From positions 2,004,946-2,068,945 of the forward strand of contig JAKVOM010000001.1 of NCBI GenBank assembly GCA_022482815.1: 64,000 nucleotides of DNA, given 5' to 3'. The notes beneath the pieces are model-generated. The model made no database searches. It worked only from the letters and a program-made list of their open reading frames with translations, and was not told where the DNA came from. Below are positions 6,315 to 17,247 of this stretch, piece after piece. The stretch is from Acidaminococcus sp. (GTDB taxonomy: Bacteria; Bacillota; Negativicutes; Acidaminococcales; Acidaminococcaceae). The position numbers and the translations under genes are program-made. Every line of letters begins with the position of its first letter. The first letter of the stretch is position 1.

Positions 6315-9300
6315 ATGATGAGGGAAGGATTGAGAAGGAAAGTATTGTTGGCGCTAAGTATGACTGTAGGGGTCATGGGAACGGCGATGCCGGTGGATGC
6401 AGAATATTTGCAGATTCCTGAGAGTGGTACATTAACCCAGGCGGGAGATATTTCTTATGTCGGCTCTGGGTTTAGTGGTTTTGCTATATCTTTTAAAAAT
6501 AATGACCAGCCCTATACATATACCATTAAAAGTACTGGAGGCAGTGTAACTGCCGATGGGTCTGTCGGCGGTATTTTCGTAAATAACAACCAAACATTAA
6601 CGGTGGAAGCAGCTAAAAATATAACTGTTTCAGAACTTGTTGATTCTTCAGGTATGATAGTTCTTGGCGGAAATGTCAATTTAGAAGCTGGAGAAGGTAT
6701 CACTATAAACGGGAATTTCTCTGGGGTGCGTGTTAGCGGGCTAGATTCTGATCCCACAACTGCTCCGGATGTAACTACACCGGGGGCTTCCGTTACTATG
6801 AAAACGGACGGGGATAATGTCATTTCGATTGGTGCTACGGGTATGCAAGGCGACGCTGTAGGAACGTATTCAGGCGTTAATCTGGCGATGACTGCCGGAG
6901 GAAGCAATCGAATTACAGCAGTGCCATCCTATATCCCAGAGTCATCAGATCTCAACTATTCCTTGGCTACATATGATCCTATTAACGGCATATCTCTCGG
7001 AGGCAGTCAAAGCAGTATTATGCCCTCTTTTGGAACTGTTGCACTGACGGCAGGGCAAGACAATGTGGTAAAAGGCAGCAGTAATGGCCTGATTGCTTCC
7101 GGGTATGCCAGTCTTGAATTCGATGAGGGTGATACCCTGCCGACGGTAGATTTTCTGCATAGTGACATCACTATGGATGCAGGCGGTGACAACCAGCTTA
7201 TCGGTGACTATGATACCGGGCTTGACATTTATGCCGGTACCACCGCCACATTGACTGCCGGCGGTACCAATATAATCCAGGGACCTCAGTTTGGCGCCCA
7301 CGTGGATTATTTTGCTGATCTTACTGTCAATGGCGATAGTGATATCTCGTCAGAGCAAATAGCACTCTGGACCGCTGGCAAGGCAGATACGATCCTGGAT
7401 GGTCAGGACGGAACGATATCCATTACGGCGGCTTCTTCCGATACGAACAGCGATAGTACTGCAACATCGACTCCCATTGCCGTTGCGGCTATGACAGGTG
7501 GTTATACGACACTGCAAAACGGGACTTTAAAAATCAACGGTGCGACGGCTTTGGCGGCAGCGCATACGTATTATCAAGGGTGTTCTATAGACGAATTTCC
7601 TGAGTTTACTCCATATAGCAATGGAATTACTGTCGCATCTGTAAGTGTCGTGCAGCCGTCTCTTTATGCTGTTGATGTGTCGTCTGCTTATACTAAGGAC
7701 AAAGAAAATCGTGCGTCCGTCATTACGGCCCTGTATGGCAAAGACAGTGAAATTAATGGCGATATCTACGCCTACGACCACGGTACGATTACGATTGCTC
7801 CGGAAGATGATGGGAAAATCGATATCAATGGGGATGTCTTTGCTTCCGGCGATGATTATCTTGCAGGCGGTGACACGCTGACGTATGCATACAACCTGAA
7901 CAATCCGGAAGATGACAATATCACCACTGAAAGTAAGGTTGATATAACTCTCGATAATGCATCGATACTTGTTGGAATGGCTGATACGGGAACCCTGATG
8001 AGAAGGGAACTCTTGTTGGCAGGAAATCCGGATTCTGATTCTATGACTGATGAAGACTGGGAAAATAGTTTACCTGAGGCAGGTATCCTTAACCTCACCC
8101 TTAATAACGGCAGTGAATGGACCATGACTGATTCGTCATCCGTCACGACGTTATCCGGTTCGGGAGGATATGTCACCTATGAAAATGGCGGCAATTCTCT
8201 GGAAATCGAAAACTTGTCCGGTAATTTGACTTTTAGTATGGACCTTGATGCTGAAGACGGCAGTCAGAGTGATATGCTGTATGTCGTGAACGGCGGCGGG
8301 ACGCAGACACTGAATGTAAAAAATCTTCAGTCGCTCGATAGCCAGATGGAAGTAGGAGATGTGGTCCGTTTTGCTACTATTAAGAATTCCCAGAATGAAT
8401 TTGTGGATGGCAGCACGGTGGCGGTCGTTACTTCCGGAATCTATAACAATAGTTATAATATACTTTATCGTGATTATGAATCCGATCCGCTCAATACGGA
8501 AGCATACAATAATGACCGGAACGGCGGCGCTGCTTACACAGAGGACAGCAGCAAACCGGGCACGGAAATCGTGGAATCTCTCTACGGTGGTGAAGGCGCC
8601 AAGAACGTATACCTCATCAAGAACCAGACTGTAAACGATGGGGCTAAGACGCCCTCAAGGGTCAGAGATCTTGTCTGGCGTTATATGAGTGATCTTGATA
8701 CGTTTACCAAGCGCAGCGGACAAAGTCAGTACTTTACGGATGAAGGAGACCGCGGCGGCTGGATCCGCCTTGGATATCACAATCTGGGCGTGGATGGCGT
8801 AGGCGAACTGGAAGGCAATACCTATGAATTAGGCTGGACCACGATTGCCCGTCAGAATGACGAACGGAAACATCGTTTCAGTGCTTCTGTGGCCTATGGG
8901 AAGCCGGATGGCTATTTTGAAGACTGGGGCGGCGACCTGACAGTACGCGACTTCTCCGTGAACCTGTACGATACTCATGAGTACTATCCTTCGGCTGAAA
9001 GTCTCGTCAATAAACCGGAATGGAAAAAGGAATCCCATGCTTACTGGGACAATTATCTGAAGTATCATCATGTAAAAACGGAATACAGTGCCATCGATCG
9101 TATGACAGGTACGATGTATGACGGCGACTATGACCAGGATATCTGGAGTCTTTCGACGGAATATGGTCATAAACTGATGATGAACAAGGATTGGTTCTGG
9201 GTGCCTCAGGCTCAGCTGCAGCTATCCTATATTGGTGGCTATGACTATAAGGATTCTCAGGGACTGAGCGTATCCGGCGACCATGACTGGAGCCTGATTG

Positions 9301-9593
9301 GTAGACTCGGATTTGATATCGTGAAGAAGATGGATCCGAAACTGGATAGTAAATTGTATTTCAAAGCCGGATTGCTCCATGAGTTTATGGACGGTAACGA
9401 TGTAACCGTATCTGCACAAGGTGACCGTTATTTTAATGAAGGCGACCAGAGCGGAACCTGGGGTGTTTTCGGACTTGGTTATTCTGCAAAAATCGGTGAA
9501 CAACAGTATTTCTATGCCGACTTTGAACGTTATGTAGGCAATGATTTCGAACGCACGTATAATATCCGTGCCGGTGTAAACTGGAAGTTCTAA
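6315..9593 (+). CDS. Autotransporter outer-membrane protein (type Va secretion)
   Basis: A 1092-residue exported protein. The signal peptide ends near PVDA (residue ~29). The long passenger (~30-790) is rich in G, T, N and D and low in charge. It contains a recurring glycine-asparagine motif: KTDGDN ~161, TAGGSN ~192, TAGQDN ~244, DAGGDN ~286, TAGGTN ~313, as expected of a right-handed beta-helix. The last ~290 residues, from about RGGWIRLGY (812), have alternating aromatic and hydrophobic strands and end in VNWKF with a C-terminal Phe, the sign of an autotransporter barrel inserted by BamA. It starts at the first of two tandem ATGs, 6 bases after GAGGAGA. This gene is strong evidence for an outer membrane. 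The passenger may be an adhesin; no protease or esterase motif was recognised. Confidence 0.9.
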   Translation: MMREGLRRKVLLALSMTVGVMGTAMPVDAEYLQIPESGTLTQAGDISYVGSGFSGFAISFKNNDQPYTYTIKSTGGSVTADGSVGGIFVNNNQTLTVEAAKNITVSELVDSSGMIVLGGNVNLEAGEGITINGNFSGVRVSGLDSDPTTAPDVTTPGASVTMKTDGDNVISIGATGMQGDAVGTYSGVNLAMTAGGSNRITAVPSYIPESSDLNYSLATYDPINGISLGGSQSSIMPSFGTVALTAGQDNVVKGSSNGLIASGYASLEFDEGDTLPTVDFLHSDITMDAGGDNQLIGDYDTGLDIYAGTTATLTAGGTNIIQGPQFGAHVDYFADLTVNGDSDISSEQIALWTAGKADTILDGQDGTISITAASSDTNSDSTATSTPIAVAAMTGGYTTLQNGTLKINGATALAAAHTYYQGCSIDEFPEFTPYSNGITVASVSVVQPSLYAVDVSSAYTKDKENRASVITALYGKDSEINGDIYAYDHGTITIAPEDDGKIDINGDVFASGDDYLAGGDTLTYAYNLNNPEDDNITTESKVDITLDNASILVGMADTGTLMRRELLLAGNPDSDSMTDEDWENSLPEAGILNLTLNNGSEWTMTDSSSVTTLSGSGGYVTYENGGNSLEIENLSGNLTFSMDLDAEDGSQSDMLYVVNGGGTQTLNVKNLQSLDSQMEVGDVVRFATIKNSQNEFVDGSTVAVVTSGIYNNSYNILYRDYESDPLNTEAYNNDRNGGAAYTEDSSKPGTEIVESLYGGEGAKNVYLIKNQTVNDGAKTPSRVRDLVWRYMSDLDTFTKRSGQSQYFTDEGDRGGWIRLGYHNLGVDGVGELEGNTYELGWTTIARQNDERKHRFSASVAYGKPDGYFEDWGGDLTVRDFSVNLYDTHEYYPSAESLVNKPEWKKESHAYWDNYLKYHHVKTEYSAIDRMTGTMYDGDYDQDIWSLSTEYGHKLMMNKDWFWVPQAQLQLSYIGGYDYKDSQGLSVSGDHDWSLIGRLGFDIVKKMDPKLDSKLYFKAGLLHEFMDGNDVTVSAQGDRYFNEGDQSGTWGVFGLGYSAKIGEQQYFYADFERYVGNDFERTYNIRAGVNWKF

Positions 9594-12526: not shown

Positions 12527-12555
12527 TTGACATTTTTGGAAAACAGTCGTACTAT
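12527..12555 (+). promoter_or_regulatory. Sigma-A promoter of the S-box operon
   Basis: Consensus TTGACA (12527-12532), 17-base spacer, TACTAT (12550-12555). Transcription would begin about 15-20 bases before the riboswitch. Confidence 0.8.
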
Positions 12556-12579
12556 CTGAAACATCAACTACATATTTCC

Positions 12580-12676
12580 TTCATCAAGAGCAGTCGAGGG
12601 ATTGGCCCGATGACACTGCGGCAACCCCCTTAAAAGGGATAGGTGCCAAGTCCAACGGTATTAACCGACAGATGAA
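12580..12676 (+). promoter_or_regulatory. SAM-I (S-box) riboswitch
   Basis: The conserved S-box core is present in order: ATCAAGAGCAG, GAGGGATTGGCCCGATGA, GCGGCAACC, GGTGCCAAGTCC, with P1 formed by TTCATC (12580) and GATGAA (12671). ACAGATGA (12668-12675) is the exact complement of TCATCTGT (12698-12705) in the terminator stem. The alternative antiterminator can therefore be read directly: SAM bound means P1 and terminator form, SAM low means read-through. Confidence 0.95.
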
Positions 12677-12691
12677 CGTATTTAGCGTTTG

Positions 12692-12718
12692 AAGCCGTCA
12701 TCTGTTGACGGCTTTTTT
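12692..12718 (+). terminator. Riboswitch-controlled terminator
   Basis: AAGCCGTCA / TGACGGCTT stem followed by TTTTT. It is mutually exclusive with the antiterminator pairing to 12668-12675. Confidence 0.9.
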
Positions 12719-12755
12719 CTTTGTGAGGGAAGAAAAGAAAGGAATTGATTTTGTC

Positions 12756-13580
12756 ATGAGAAACAAACTGAGAATCTTCGTCACGGGTGCTTTGATCGCT
12801 GCTTCCTGCCTTTCCATTCTGGGATGCGGTTCTTCCTCTGCAGATAAGAGTGCAGGAGCCAAGAAGGAAATCAAGGTCGGCGTAACCGCCGGTCCTCACG
12901 CAGAAGTCATGGAAGAAGTGGCCAAGGAAGCCGCTAAGCAGGGCATCACGATTAAAGTCGTTGAATTTAACGATTTTGTTCAGCCCGATAAGGCTCTTTC
13001 CGATAAGGACCTCGACATGAACTCTTACCAGCATCAGCCTTATCTTGACAACATTGTCAAAAAACAGGGTCTCAAGCTGAAATCCATCGGCAAGACCATT
13101 TTGATGCCGATGGCTGTATATTCCCACAAATATAAATCCCTGAAGGACGTCGAAGACGGTGCCAAGGTTACGATTCCTAACGATCCGACCAACGGGGCCC
13201 GCGGTCTTCTCCTGATTCAGCAAGCCGGGCTGATTAAATTGAAGAATGGCGATTCCATCGAAGCTACGCCGGCCGATATCGTAGAAAATCCGAAACATCT
13301 GCAGTTCATCGAACTGGATGCCGCTCAGATTGCCCGCAGCCTGGATGATTCCGATGTGGCCTGTGTCAACACCAACTATGCCATTCCTGCCGGCCTGAAC
13401 CCGGTGAAGGATTCTCTCCTGGTAGAATCCAAGGAATCTCCGTACGCCTGCGTCCTGGCCGTCCGTGAAGGCGATGAAAACAACGAAGATTATAAAAAAG
13501 TGCTTGCTGTTTACCAATCCGACCCGATCAAGAAATTTGTCCAGGATCATTTCAAGGGAACCATTGTTCCTGCATTCTAA
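12756..13580 (+). CDS. metQ: MetQ-type methionine-binding lipoprotein (first copy)
   Basis: A 274-residue lipoprotein of the NlpA/MetQ family, the extracytoplasmic binding component of the MetNIQ methionine ABC importer. The lipobox SILGC puts the lipidated Cys at residue 24. Family hallmarks follow: GVTAGPHAEVME, VEFNDFVQPDKAL, NSYQHQPYL, IPNDPTNGARGLLLI and a C-terminal KGTIVPAF. I chose the ATG at 12756, which keeps the signal peptide intact and lies after AAAGAAAGGA, over upstream in-frame starts that fall inside the riboswitch terminator. Control by the S-box riboswitch supports methionine as ligand. No metN or metI is present in this window, so the transporter core is encoded elsewhere. 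Confidence 0.93.
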   Translation: MRNKLRIFVTGALIAASCLSILGCGSSSADKSAGAKKEIKVGVTAGPHAEVMEEVAKEAAKQGITIKVVEFNDFVQPDKALSDKDLDMNSYQHQPYLDNIVKKQGLKLKSIGKTILMPMAVYSHKYKSLKDVEDGAKVTIPNDPTNGARGLLLIQQAGLIKLKNGDSIEATPADIVENPKHLQFIELDAAQIARSLDDSDVACVNTNYAIPAGLNPVKDSLLVESKESPYACVLAVREGDENNEDYKKVLAVYQSDPIKKFVQDHFKGTIVPAF

Positions 13581-13639
13581 GATTCTGCGAAACTAGTATC
13601 ATACATTATTTTTAATTTTTAACGAAGGTGACTGTATCC

Positions 13640-15040
13640 ATGAAAACGTATCAACCAGTAACGGATGAAGTGGTCGAAAAGCTTAAGGCCATTGTCGGTC
13701 CCAGCCATGTAAAAACTGACAAGGATATCCTCGTGCAGTATCAGACGGATTATGAAACCAATCCGGCGATGTTTCACATGCCTGAGGCGGCCGTCATTCC
13801 GGGAAATGCCGAAGAAATTGCGGCGATTGTCAAACTCGCTAATGAGTATGATTTCCCGATTACGGTTCGCAGCGGCGGTACGAGCCTGGCAGACGGTGCG
13901 ATTCCGGTCTGCGGCGGTATCGTTCTCAGCATGGAACGGCTCAATAAGATTCTGGAGCTGAACGAGGAAGGCATGTACATGACGGTGGAAGCCGGTGTCC
14001 GTACGATTGACCTGCAGAAGGAAGCCCACAAACACGGCCTTCTGTATGCAGGCGACCCTTCCAGTGCGGAAAGCTGCATGATTGGAGCCAATCTGGCTAC
14101 GAATGCAGGTGGCCTGGAAGCCGTTCGTTACGGGGTGACGCGTGACCAGGTTTATTGCCTGGAAATGGTTTCACCGACCGGTGAAATCGTACAGTGCGGC
14201 AGCATCCTGAAAAAGTGTTCTACCGGTTATGATCTGGAGCAGCTCATCATAGGCAGCGAAGGGACGCTCGGCATCATTACGAAAGTGACGGTCAAATTGG
14301 TGCCACTGCCTCCGTACCGCTTTGATGTGCTGGCAATCTACACGGATCCTCATAAGGCCCTCCACATGGTGCCGAAGCTGCTCAAGGCCGGAATCAATCC
14401 GACGAGCGTGGAATATATGGATAATTCCTATGTTCGTGGTTGCGCAGATTACTGTAAATATGATAATATGCCTCATTATGAGGATGGTATTTACGTCATC
14501 ATTACAGTGGAAACTTTCCGGGAAGACGAGCTCGACAGCAAGATGGAAACGGTCAGTGACATCTGTGAAGAATCGGGTGCCGTTGATGTCCTCGAAGCAG
14601 ATGAACGCGTCTGGAACATGCGCCGCAGCTGCCAGCCTTCGTGCGAACTCATCAGCAAGGTATTCCTGACAGATGATGTCGTGGTACCGGTTCATAAGAT
14701 TGCTTCCACTATAGAAAAAATTATGGAAATCAGTGAAAATTATCCCTTCCAGGCTAAAATCAATGCCCATATCGGCGACGGCAACATGCATATTGTATTG
14801 TGCAAGACCAATATGACCGATGAGGAATGGGAAAAGAACGTCGAGGAATTCCATCAGCAGGTATATGCTTATGCGTATTCCGTCGGTGGCAGACTGGCCG
14901 GGGAACATGGCATTGGCGCCAAGAAACTGAGATATATGGAAGAATTTACGCCGAGCAGCGAACTCAATGTCATGAAGACCATTAAGCGCGCCATGGATCC
15001 GAAACTGATCCTGAACCCGGGCAAAGTCATTGATGCATAG
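13640..15040 (+). CDS. FAD-linked 2-hydroxyacid dehydrogenase (GlcD/D-lactate dehydrogenase-like)
   Basis: A 466-residue flavoprotein. The N-terminal PCMH-type FAD-binding domain shows PITVRSGGTSLADGAIP, DPSSAESCMIGANLATNAGG and SEGTLGIIT. The C-terminal FAD-oxidase domain shows HIGDGNMHIV and GEHGIGAKK. The family oxidises D-2-hydroxyacids (glycolate, D-lactate, 2-hydroxyglutarate), passing electrons to a carrier such as an electron-transfer flavoprotein. The ATG at 13640 lies 9 bases after AAGGTG. Only 59 bases with no terminator separate it from metQ upstream and 38 from a second metQ downstream, so it should share the SAM riboswitch. That placement suggests a methionine-related hydroxyacid, for example 2-hydroxy-4-methylthiobutyrate, as substrate; this is inference. 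D-lactate or glycolate remain possible. Confidence 0.9.
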   Translation: MKTYQPVTDEVVEKLKAIVGPSHVKTDKDILVQYQTDYETNPAMFHMPEAAVIPGNAEEIAAIVKLANEYDFPITVRSGGTSLADGAIPVCGGIVLSMERLNKILELNEEGMYMTVEAGVRTIDLQKEAHKHGLLYAGDPSSAESCMIGANLATNAGGLEAVRYGVTRDQVYCLEMVSPTGEIVQCGSILKKCSTGYDLEQLIIGSEGTLGIITKVTVKLVPLPPYRFDVLAIYTDPHKALHMVPKLLKAGINPTSVEYMDNSYVRGCADYCKYDNMPHYEDGIYVIITVETFREDELDSKMETVSDICEESGAVDVLEADERVWNMRRSCQPSCELISKVFLTDDVVVPVHKIASTIEKIMEISENYPFQAKINAHIGDGNMHIVLCKTNMTDEEWEKNVEEFHQQVYAYAYSVGGRLAGEHGIGAKKLRYMEEFTPSSELNVMKTIKRAMDPKLILNPGKVIDA

Positions 15041-15078
15041 TTCATTAAAAAATTAAAATAAAAAAGGAGAGTCTCATT

Positions 15079-15903
15079 ATGAAAAAATTGATTGCATGCT
15101 TTTTGGCAGTGCTCGCCCTTGCTGGTCTCACGGCCGGCTGCGGCGGCGACAACAAGGATTCGAAGGCTGCCAGCGGGGACAAGAAAGCAGTCCTGAAAGT
15201 CGGTGCAACACCGGTACCGCACGCGGAAATCCTGAACCACATCAAAGATGCCCTGGCTAAAGACGGCGTGGATCTGCAGGTCGTGGAATTCACCGATTAT
15301 GTGAAGCCGAACCTGAGCCTGAACGACAAGGAACTGGATGCCAACTTCTTCCAGCATGAACCGTATCTGAAGAAGTTCTGTGAAGATCGGAAACTGAACC
15401 TCGTCGCTCTGTGCAAGGTACATATCGAACCGATGGGTGTATATTCCAAGCGCATCAAAGATATTAAAGATGTCAAGGATGGCGCTGTAGTGGCTATTCC
15501 TAACGATCCGACCAACGGCGGACGTGCTCTCAACATTCTTGAAAAAGCCGGCCTGATTAAACTGAAGGAAGGTATTGGCATCGCTGCTACGGTAAATGAT
15601 GTGACCGAAAATCCGAAGAACATCAAGATTCAGGAAGCTGAAGCTGCTATGCTGCCGCGTACCCTGGACGATGTTGACCTTGCCGTCATCAACTCCAACT
15701 TTGCACTGGAAGCAAAGCTGAACCCGACCAAGGATGCAATCTTCATCGAACCGAAAGATTCTCCTTATGCTAACGTCATCGCTGTCAGAAAAGGCGATGA
15801 AAACCGTCCTGAAATCCAAAAGCTGAAAAAAGCGCTGCTGACTGACGACGTAAAGAAGTTCATTGAAGAAAAATACAAAGGATCCATTGTTCCTGCATTT
15901 TGA
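15079..15903 (+). CDS. metQ: MetQ-type methionine-binding lipoprotein (second copy)
   Basis: A 274-residue paralogue of the metQ two genes upstream. The lipobox LTAGC places the lipid anchor at Cys21. Shared motifs are GATPVPHAEIL, VEFTDYVKPNLSL, NFFQHEPYL, IPNDPTNGGRALNIL and C-terminal KGSIVPAF. The sequences differ throughout, so this is an old duplication or separate acquisition rather than a recent copy. It could widen ligand range, for instance L- versus D-methionine or an oxidised or hydroxy analogue. The ribosome site is AAAAAGGAGAG. It is the last gene of the S-box operon and ends at a strong terminator. Confidence 0.93.
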   Translation: MKKLIACFLAVLALAGLTAGCGGDNKDSKAASGDKKAVLKVGATPVPHAEILNHIKDALAKDGVDLQVVEFTDYVKPNLSLNDKELDANFFQHEPYLKKFCEDRKLNLVALCKVHIEPMGVYSKRIKDIKDVKDGAVVAIPNDPTNGGRALNILEKAGLIKLKEGIGIAATVNDVTENPKNIKIQEAEAAMLPRTLDDVDLAVINSNFALEAKLNPTKDAIFIEPKDSPYANVIAVRKGDENRPEIQKLKKALLTDDVKKFIEEKYKGSIVPAF

Positions 15904-16230: not shown

Positions 16231-17247
16231 GTGCCGTTTACCATCCTTAGACAAGATATTACACAGATGAAAGTCGACGCCATTGTGAATTCGGCCAATA
16301 AAGATCTTTCCATGGGCGGCGGTACCTGCGGCAGCATCTTTAAGGCTGCCGGTACCAAGGCACTCCAGGAAGCCTGCGCTAAGTTGGGACCTATTCGTAT
16401 CGGAGATGCCGTCATCACACCGGGATTTCATTTGCCGGCAAAATATATTATTCATACGGCAGGGCCTGTGTACAACCGGCTTCATTCCGCTCAGTGTGAA
16501 AAAGCGCTCCGGTCCGCCTATGAAGCTGCGCTTCAGCTTGCACTGAGGCAGCATCTGAAGAGCATTGCGTTTCCGCTGATTTCAACTGGTCTTTTCGGAT
16601 ATCCTAAGGCGGAGGCGCTGCAGATTGCTGTATCTGAAATCAAGCAGTTCCTTGAGCTCTATGAGATGGATGTCTATTTAGTCATTTATGATAAGGATTC
16701 CTTTATTATCAGTGAGTCTCTCATGGGTGATGTTCAGAGCTTCATCGATGAGCATTATGTGAAGACGCACGAGCCTCCGCTCAATCGTCGCCGGGATATC
16801 GAAATCAACGCATTGATGATTGAAAATCGAGGGCTGGATGTCACTCACGAAACCGGAGCACTTCCTGAGGATAAGAGTCTCCTGGAACAGCTTGAACATC
16901 TAGATGAGCCCTTTAACCAGGCTCTCCTGCGCCTGATTGATCAGAAAAAAATGAAAGATTCCGATGTCTATAAGAAAGCAAATATTGACCGCAAACTTTT
17001 TTCCAAGATTCGCAAGGGAAAAGGGTATATGCCGAGCAAAAAGACCATTCTGGCACTTGCTGTCGCACTGGAACTTACGCTTCCCGAAACGGATGCACTG
17101 CTCGCAAAGGCAGGATATACGCTCTCTGACAGCATCAAATTTGACGTGATTTTGCAGTATTTTATCGTAAACCGGAACTATGATATTTTTACCATCAATG
17201 AGGTATTGTTTAAGTTTGACCAGCCATTGTTGGGAAATGTAGGGTAA
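16231..17247 (+). CDS. Macrodomain protein with C-terminal helix-turn-helix domain
   Basis: A 338-residue cytoplasmic protein. Residues 1-~160 are a macrodomain: VDAIVNSANKDLSMGGG, the GSIFKAAG loop, AKYIIHTAGP and IAFPLISTGLFGYP, the residues that bind ADP-ribose or O-acetyl-ADP-ribose. After a linker (~165-215), residues ~220-290 look like an XRE-type HTH (YKKANIDRKLFSKIRKGKG, then SKKTILALAVALELTLPE). The family hydrolyses or reads ADP-ribose adducts; the added DNA-binding-like domain suggests a sensor or autoregulator. Start is GTG after GTGGGGGA; no better ATG is in frame upstream. Monocistronic, with a strong terminator. Confidence 0.88.
   Translation: MPFTILRQDITQMKVDAIVNSANKDLSMGGGTCGSIFKAAGTKALQEACAKLGPIRIGDAVITPGFHLPAKYIIHTAGPVYNRLHSAQCEKALRSAYEAALQLALRQHLKSIAFPLISTGLFGYPKAEALQIAVSEIKQFLELYEMDVYLVIYDKDSFIISESLMGDVQSFIDEHYVKTHEPPLNRRRDIEINALMIENRGLDVTHETGALPEDKSLLEQLEHLDEPFNQALLRLIDQKKMKDSDVYKKANIDRKLFSKIRKGKGYMPSKKTILALAVALELTLPETDALLAKAGYTLSDSIKFDVILQYFIVNRNYDIFTINEVLFKFDQPLLGNVG

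What the first reader, a model, noticed from the sequence alone, without database searches (positions are those of the whole stretch)
12527..15903. SAM riboswitch operon with an FAD hydroxyacid dehydrogenase between two metQ genes
Seen: promoter, S-box, terminator and antiterminator pairing, then metQ, dehydrogenase, metQ with no terminator between. Known: S-box operons serve methionine and cysteine supply; GlcD-type enzymes oxidise D-2-hydroxyacids. Inference: the enzyme may oxidise 2-hydroxy-4-methylthiobutyrate (methionine hydroxy analogue) or a related acid to the keto acid, with the lipoproteins delivering ligand: a methionine scavenging route not described to my knowledge.
Basis: partly seen in the sequence, partly recalled or inferred. 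Interest (0 to 1): 0.62.

Follow-up and report, generated by a model that had tools for sequence, protein, structure and literature searches.

The report
SAM-switch operon with hydroxy-acid dehydrogenase
In a gut bacterium, an RNA switch that senses low methionine supply appears to control two methionine-binding proteins and, unusually, a flavin enzyme that probably turns a hydroxy acid into a keto acid, which hints at an untested way to recover methionine from its hydroxy form.

Summary
A SAM-I (S-box) riboswitch (85 bits, cut-off 44.4) with terminator and competing antiterminator precedes metQ1, a LctD/LDHD-type FAD 2-hydroxyacid dehydrogenase and metQ2; no terminator is seen between the genes and a strong one follows. 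The genome's other three S-boxes precede metK, metNI without metQ, and metQ-M20 hydrolase.

The methionine-hydroxy-analogue reading remains inference. For: 11 of 16 carriers of this dehydrogenase have a MetQ gene within 5 kb, against 1 of 17 loci of related enzymes; catalytic residues are kept; selection is purifying. Against: only the window has the enzyme behind the S-box; in 8 of 16 it lies upstream of S-box-metQ1; 5 of 16 have no MetQ nearby.

The unit is a lineage-specific assembly: metQ2 moved from beside malic enzyme, while the dehydrogenase and metQ1 resemble those of Megasphaera. MetQ1 has Cys in place of the Asn that holds methionine's amino and carboxyl groups; MetQ2 keeps Asn.

Verdict: a real S-box unit with an unusual member. 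Methionine-hydroxyacid scavenging is plausible (about 0.4); a captured general D-hydroxyacid dehydrogenase is nearly as likely.

The parts
12527..12555 (+). sigma-70-type promoter-like hexamers (TTGACA, 17 nt, TACTAT)
   Evidence: consensus match only
12578..12678 (+). SAM-I (S-box) riboswitch aptamer, RF00162
   Evidence: 85 bits, gathering 44.4, one of four in the genome
12668..12675 (+). P1 3' strand that can pair with 12698-12705 (antiterminator)
12691..12715 (+). intrinsic terminator hairpin followed by U run
12756..13580 (+). metQ1, MetQ/NlpA lipoprotein; Cys232 (codon 13449-13451) in place of the methionine-clamping Asn
13640..15040 (+). FAD 2-hydroxyacid dehydrogenase (LctD/LDHD type), R328, H377, H384, E422, H423 kept
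15079..15903 (+). metQ2, MetQ lipoprotein with all seven canonical methionine-site residues
15914..15944 (+). intrinsic terminator closing the unit

Best explanation
A SAM-repressed transcription unit that raises methionine supply when SAM falls. Well supported by sequence: with SAM bound, P1 is held and the terminator stops transcription; with little SAM the antiterminator lets metQ1, the dehydrogenase and metQ2 be made. MetQ2 looks like a canonical methionine-binding lipoprotein and would feed the S-box-controlled MetNI core, whose locus lacks a metQ. Inferred: MetQ1, with its altered clamp, takes a methionine derivative; the cytoplasmic flavoenzyme oxidises a D-2-hydroxyacid, most likely D-2-hydroxy-4-methylthiobutyrate (D-HMTB), to 2-keto-4-methylthiobutyrate, which an aminotransferase turns into methionine; electrons go to ETF or another carrier. 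Step likelihoods (my judgement): SAM control 0.9; D-2-hydroxyacid dehydrogenase 0.85; methionine-related substrate about 0.4.
For: S-box, terminator, antiterminator. The other three S-boxes of the genome precede metK, metNI and metQ4-M20 (Pfam). MetQ gene within 5 kb in 11 of 16 carriers and S-box-metQ1 beside the gene in 9 of 16, against MetQ in 1 of 17 loci of related enzymes (Fisher p 2.3e-4 without correction for shared descent). Distinct arrangements: S-box-metQ1 downstream; convergent metQ3-like gene in G020; dehydrogenase-dehydrogenase-metQ-M20 on one strand in G018 (and a metQ directly after the tandem dehydrogenases in its congener G030); metQ2 moved in next to the gene in the window. 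Residue 333, beside the pocket, is T or P in 11 of 11 clade rows and E in 46 of 46 other rows; the five catalytic residues are in 57 of 57 rows. dN/dS 0.04-0.07 for the dehydrogenase, 0.08 metQ1, 0.05 metQ2. Mouse LDHD oxidises D-2-hydroxyacids with hydrophobic side chains (PMC10589216, passages read). In animals D-HMTBA conversion is assigned to a D-2-hydroxyacid dehydrogenase (PMC6662248, one passage).
Against: The enzyme is behind an S-box in 1 of 16 carriers only; in G001 a promoter-like TTGACT-17-TATGAT lies between it and the S-box (by eye). 5 of 16 carriers have no MetQ within 5 kb. The linkage may be inherited once and kept by chance. Pocket residue Q332, where LDHD has Trp, also occurs in 17 of 46 other rows, most of them from loci without a MetQ neighbour. 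Megasphaera-family metQ1 orthologues that were examined keep Asn. The genome has a homoserine O-succinyltransferase (MetA) orthologue (79%), so a need for scavenging is not evident. No substrate data exist.
Confidence: 0.42

Rival explanations
1. A general D-lactate or short-chain D-2-hydroxyacid dehydrogenase, passing electrons to ETF, was captured behind S-box-metQ1 by a rearrangement; SAM control is incidental and the enzyme has no methionine role.
For: Closest solved relatives are LctD and D-LDHs by sequence and fold; the unit is lineage-specific and contains a moved metQ2; enzyme behind an S-box in 1 of 16 carriers; two ETF-alpha genes in the genome.
Against: Repeated linkage to MetQ in several arrangements; no ETF gene beside it; pocket residues 332 and 333 differ from LDHD.
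Confidence: 0.36
2. The enzyme oxidises the 2-hydroxy form of another amino acid (branched-chain or short-chain), and the linked MetQ-family proteins and M20 hydrolases scavenge amino-acid derivatives in general.
For: T-box operons near the gene in the Megasphaera family appear to carry different specifier codons (ATG in L016 and L018, GTG in L017, CTG in L015; read by eye, with the Rfam alignment for L017 and L018 only); M20-family genes recur beside MetQ.
Against: Specifier reading is by eye; S-box control in the window points to methionine or SAM.
Confidence: 0.15
3. D-2-hydroxyglutarate or glycolate dehydrogenase.
For: Same superfamily; GlcD and D2HG dehydrogenase family models hit below their cut-offs.
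Against: GlcD score 366 against cut-off 567.9, no GlcE or GlcF in the unit; the D2HGDH pocket named in the LDHD paper (Thr390, Asn443, Lys401) corresponds to Q332, V386 and L343/T344 here (the D2HGDH offsets are recalled).
Confidence: 0.04
4. The three genes are not one transcript: an undetected promoter or terminator separates the dehydrogenase.
For: No transcript data; in G001 and seven Megasphaera-family loci the gene lies upstream of the S-box, outside its control.
Against: Gaps of 59 and 38 nt without hairpins beyond chance, terminator only after metQ2.
Confidence: 0.03

Closest known systems
SAM-I (S-box) riboswitch units for methionine uptake and SAM synthesis (metNIQ, metK, metT)
   Same: Aptamer, terminator and antiterminator; MetQ genes; metK and metNI under the same switch in this genome
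   Different: A FAD 2-hydroxyacid dehydrogenase inside the unit and two different MetQs without metNI
LctD of Acetobacterium woodii (PDB 7qh2) and mouse LDHD (8jdc and others)
   Same: Two FAD-oxidase domains, metal-binding His/His/Glu, substrate Arg and His; best (LctD) and fifth-listed or lower (LDHD) sequence and fold matches
   Different: No etfAB neighbours; Gln332 where LDHD has Trp351; S-box control
Vertebrate D-HMTBA to methionine route (D-2-hydroxyacid dehydrogenase, then transamination; the second step recalled)
   Same: Proposed chemistry
   Different: Bacterial, riboswitch-controlled, linked to MetQ; unproven here
metQ-M20 S-box unit of the same genus
   Same: S-box, MetQ, then an enzyme that could free methionine from a derivative
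   Different: M20 hydrolase in place of dehydrogenase; present in the window's genome and in 4 of 4 same-genus stretches that I fetched at S-box-metQ pairs

Membership tests
SAM-I riboswitch (RF00162) | aptamer above the gathering score | tested here: met
   85 against 44.4 bits
SAM-I riboswitch (RF00162) | mutually exclusive terminator and antiterminator | tested here: met
   pairing and energies computed, switching not observed
SAM-I riboswitch (RF00162) | SAM binding and SAM-dependent termination | not testable with these tools
   needs in-line probing or in vitro transcription
VAO/PCMH D-2-hydroxyacid dehydrogenases (LctD/LDHD) | FAD_binding_4 plus FAD-oxidase_C domains | tested here: met
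   1.4e-40 and 6.3e-45
VAO/PCMH D-2-hydroxyacid dehydrogenases (LctD/LDHD) | Arg347, His398, His405, Glu442, His443 of mLDHD | tested here: met
   R328, H377, H384, E422, H423 (roles)
VAO/PCMH D-2-hydroxyacid dehydrogenases (LctD/LDHD) | LDHD hydrophobic subsite B (Val101, Trp351, Ser365, Ile407) | tested here: inconclusive
   L83, Q332, L343, V386: three hydrophobic, one polar
VAO/PCMH D-2-hydroxyacid dehydrogenases (LctD/LDHD) | D-2-hydroxyacid oxidation | not testable with these tools
   needs assay
LctD-EtfAB electron-bifurcating complex | etf genes in the same unit | tested here: not met
   ETF-alpha genes at 1803574 and 2935655 of the genome, not in this unit
Glycolate oxidase GlcD | TIGR00387 equivalog cut-off and GlcE/GlcF partners | tested here: not met
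   366.2 against 567.9 bits; the unit holds only two MetQ genes besides it
D-2-hydroxyglutarate dehydrogenase | Thr390, Asn443, Lys401 for the second carboxylate | tested here: not met
   Q332, V386, L343/T344 by offset from conserved residues (D2HGDH offsets recalled, its alignment was not shown)
MetQ methionine-binding lipoprotein | Lipoprotein_9 domain and TIGR00363 cut-off | tested here: met
   both proteins; the stricter PRK11063 cut-off is reached by neither
MetQ methionine-binding lipoprotein | site residues Y81, F98, H100, Y103, R156, N213, N238 of N. meningitidis MetQ, in MetQ2 | tested here: met
   7 of 7 (roles from PMC6739813, passages; columns placed by motif)
MetQ methionine-binding lipoprotein | the same seven residues in MetQ1 | tested here: not met
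   F, Y, H, Y, R, N, C; N238 replaced by Cys
HMTB-to-methionine salvage enzyme | activity on D-HMTB | not testable with these tools
   needs assay

The most novel reading that the evidence does not exclude
A SAM-riboswitch-controlled bacterial route for recovering methionine from its D-2-hydroxy analogue: a dedicated clade of flavin dehydrogenases, linked to MetQ genes and passed between Megasphaera and Acidaminococcus-type gut bacteria, with a MetQ variant whose methionine clamp has been remodelled for a ligand without the usual amino-group contact.
Probability: 0.3. Interest if true: 0.72.

Novelty: new variant of a known kind. Interest (0 to 1): 0.5.

Why it matters
If the substrate is D-HMTB, gut bacteria would have a regulated way to use a compound that is fed to livestock as a methionine source, and S-box regulons would gain an enzyme class. 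The genome also shows how a methionine regulon can be assembled: one S-box-controlled MetNI core without its own metQ, and separately placed S-box-controlled binding proteins, each beside a different enzyme (M20 hydrolase or FAD dehydrogenase) that could convert a derivative. Even if the enzyme proves to be a plain D-hydroxyacid dehydrogenase, the assembly (Megasphaera-like genes plus a relocated native metQ) is a clear example of operon building under a riboswitch.

Tried and rejected
Glycolate oxidase and D-2-hydroxyglutarate dehydrogenase were set aside on family cut-off and pocket residues. An origin of metQ2 by tandem duplication of metQ1 was rejected: the two are 47% identical and metQ2 groups with the genus's own metQ beside malic enzyme. 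Repeats at the junctions that could mark a mobile element: none found, in the window and nine other own-genome stretches only. Synteny of the flanking abrB-type and macro-domain genes in relatives gave no clean empty site (five abrB neighbourhoods read). A link between the Asn-to-Cys change and the dehydrogenase was tested on 87 MetQ rows, a sample (60 stretches chosen from the list plus MetQs in earlier loci; most metQ2 orthologues outside the genus were left out): Cys in 5 (window and G001 metQ1, plus G059, G037, G014), Met in 16 (the metQ3 clade), Leu in 3 (the metQ5 clade), Ser in 1, Asn in 62; the Megasphaera-family metQ1 rows keep Asn, so the link holds for the window and G001 only. The AlphaFold model has low confidence near the active site (mean pLDDT 73.3), so it was used for fold only. 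My first ORF picking hid metQ genes lying opposite longer spurious ORFs; tblastn replaced it. Literature: a 2004 survey of methionine regulons in Gram-positives (recalled) is not held. No report of this gene combination was seen in the listings; several listings were capped (20 of 1,181; 15 of 431; 15 of 25; 12 of 15), none of the papers listed held the HMTB term, and only an open-licence library was searched. The MetNI-Q selectivity paper PMC12357092 was searched for hydroxy, N-acetyl and other analogues without a match.
Full report
What is there. The window lies at 2004946-2068945 of a 3.06 Mb single-contig genome. Its nearest relative by these genes, G001, has a contig of the same length as L014, titled 'uncultured Acidaminococcus sp. 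isolate RUG075', so I take the host as an Acidaminococcus-type member of the Negativicutes; no taxonomy was computed. The only Rfam match above gathering score in 64 kb is a SAM riboswitch at 12578-12678. It is followed by a terminator at 12691-12715 that contains a sequence able to pair with the 3' strand of the aptamer's closing helix (8 bp, 12668-12675 with 12698-12705). Three open genes follow: metQ1, the dehydrogenase, metQ2. The gaps of 59 and 38 nt hold no hairpin beyond chance and a strong terminator follows metQ2. The promoter is a consensus match and such matches are about as common in the region as expected by chance.

The regulon. The genome has four SAM riboswitches. The genes behind the other three are metK, metNI without a metQ (MetN has the NIL domain), and metQ4 with an M20-family hydrolase (Pfam). 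The metQ4-M20 unit with S-box is also in 4 of 4 same-genus stretches, which I fetched because an S-box preceded a metQ there. A second, divergent metN2-metI2-metQ5-M20 locus (L029) has T-box-like leaders by pattern match. So one S-box-controlled MetNI core appears to be served by binding proteins placed at separate S-box units.

The enzyme. It has FAD_binding_4 and FAD-oxidase_C domains. It falls short of the GlcD equivalog cut-off (366 against 567.9). The best solved relative by sequence is LctD of Acetobacterium woodii, followed by D-lactate dehydrogenases and a putative dehydrogenase, mouse LDHD among them; a moderate-confidence model also puts LctD first. The five residues that LDHD uses for metal and for the glycolate moiety (PMC10589216, passages) are kept: R328, H377, H384, E422, H423, present in 57 of 57 aligned homologues. 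The pocket differs from LDHD: Gln332 at Trp351, Leu343 at Ser365, Val386 at Ile407, Leu83 at Val101. The D2HGDH second-carboxylate residues are missing by offset counting. Gln332 is in 11 of 11 clade rows and 17 of 46 others. Residue 333 is Thr (9) or Pro (2) in the clade and Glu in 46 of 46 others. This marks a change beside the pocket confined to this clade; what it does is unknown.

History of the unit. In a tree of 57 homologues the window enzyme sits in an 11-row clade (100/100) with G001, Megasphaera-family rows and G020, and the window-G001 pair lies in a 7-row set (99/93) whose other five rows are of the Megasphaera family. G002-G008, 7 of 8 other same-genus genomes, have only a 54-57% paralogue as best match. 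Transfer between the two lineages is therefore likely, direction unproven. metQ1 shows the same pattern: 82% to G001, 75-77% to three Megasphaera-family loci, 69% to M. micronuciformis, and 73-76% in further loci. metQ2 is different: its orthologues (75-88%) are in 8 of 8 same-genus genomes, directly after malic enzyme in the 7 stretches that reach that gene (L095 is cut), with no S-box in those stretches. In the window's genome the malic enzyme locus has no metQ (L121). So metQ2 most likely was moved behind the dehydrogenase and came under S-box control.

Linkage to MetQ. I counted 16 carriers: the window, G001, G020 and 13 of 17 genomes of G043's family (the Megasphaera family; match at E <= 1e-215). 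Five of these (G061, G062, G067, G073, G074) were assigned to the clade by identity (79-85%) and not placed in the tree. A MetQ-family gene lies within 5 kb in 11 of 16: window, G001, G020, G043, G061, G062, G066, G067, G069, G070, and G071 (metQ5 at 4.8 kb; its other side is cut by the contig end). G064, G073, G074, G075 and G076 have none; G064 has an S-box about 8 kb downstream. In 8 of 16 an S-box and metQ1 lie downstream of the enzyme on the same strand, in most with an opposite-strand gene between; with the window, 9 of 16 have S-box-metQ1 beside it. In 17 loci of related enzymes (L066-L082, several with short flanks) 1 has a MetQ neighbour, G018, where dehydrogenase, dehydrogenase, metQ and M20 follow on one strand; G030, not among the 17, shows a metQ at the same place by coordinates. 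Fisher's test on 11 of 16 against 1 of 17 gives 2.3e-4, but the rows share descent, so the true weight is lower. Within the flanks held, the enzyme is behind an S-box in the window only. In G001 the sequence between the enzyme's stop codon and the aptamer holds TTGACT-17-TATGAT (read by eye).

The binding proteins. N. meningitidis MetQ holds methionine's amino and carboxyl groups with R156, N213 and N238; N238A weakens L-Met binding more than 10^5-fold (PMC6739813, passages). MetQ2 keeps all seven listed residues. MetQ1 has Cys at N238, Phe at Y81 and Tyr at F98. The Cys is shared with G001 and not with the Megasphaera-family rows. In a sample of 87 MetQ-family rows Asn is in 62, Met in 16 (the metQ3 clade, which also has a one-residue insertion there), Cys in 5, Leu in 3, Ser in 1. 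MetQ1 of the window is thus unlikely to bind L-methionine in the usual way; a ligand without the amino group is one explanation, loss of affinity another.

Function. All three genes are under purifying selection (dN/dS 0.04-0.08 in the five pairs tested; synonymous changes near saturation). Mouse LDHD accepts D-2-hydroxyacids with hydrophobic side chains, and animal D-HMTBA use is credited to a D-2-hydroxyacid dehydrogenase (PMC6662248, one passage). S-box control plus MetQ linkage makes D-HMTB the most reasonable special substrate, at about 0.4. A plain D-lactate-type enzyme caught in the unit is nearly as likely (0.36). The genome has two ETF-alpha genes elsewhere and a MetA orthologue, so neither the electron acceptor nor a need for scavenging is settled.

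Novelty. No report of this combination was seen in the listings, several of them capped, in an open-licence library; the 2004 survey of Gram-positive methionine regulons that I recall could not be read. I rate it a new variant of a known kind.

Noticed in passing
window 13449-13451 (MetQ1 Cys232): Asn-to-Cys at the methionine clamp; Cys is also in single MetQ paralogues of G059 (second of a tandem metQ pair), G037 (a long branch) and G014, suggesting a recurrent change of ligand.
   Followed up: partly
L025 4311-5138 (metQ3) and 15 relatives: A whole MetQ clade (metQ3) has Met and a one-residue insertion at the clamp position; in the own genome it has no S-box and lies beside HxlR-type regulator and flavin-reductase-like genes.
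   Followed up: partly
L015, L016, L017, L018, L194: T-box leaders near the dehydrogenase in the Megasphaera family; specifier read by eye as ATG before M20-metNIQ (L016, L018), GTG and CTG before URO-D/ABC transporter operons (L017, L015).
   Followed up: partly
L069 8632-9405; similar starts in L066-L068, L070: A protein with 4Fe-4S motifs (Pfam hits for L069 only) is encoded directly upstream of tandem dehydrogenases in sister genera: a possible redox partner.
   Followed up: partly
L063 10037-11431: In G001 a Na+/H+ antiporter family gene follows S-box-metQ1 on the same strand, reminiscent of the S-box transporter MetT of the NhaC superfamily (PMC2940859, passage).
   Followed up: no
L121 6552-10504: Where relatives have metQ2 after malic enzyme, the own genome has about 4 kb with a GntR/aminotransferase-type regulator gene on the other strand.
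   Followed up: no
window 16231-17247: Macro-domain protein with a C-terminal Cro-type HTH; full-length relatives at 45-55% in five of 20 relatives searched.
   Followed up: no
window 6315-9593: 1092-aa protein with an autotransporter beta-domain at its C-terminus, upstream of the abrB-type gene.
   Followed up: no
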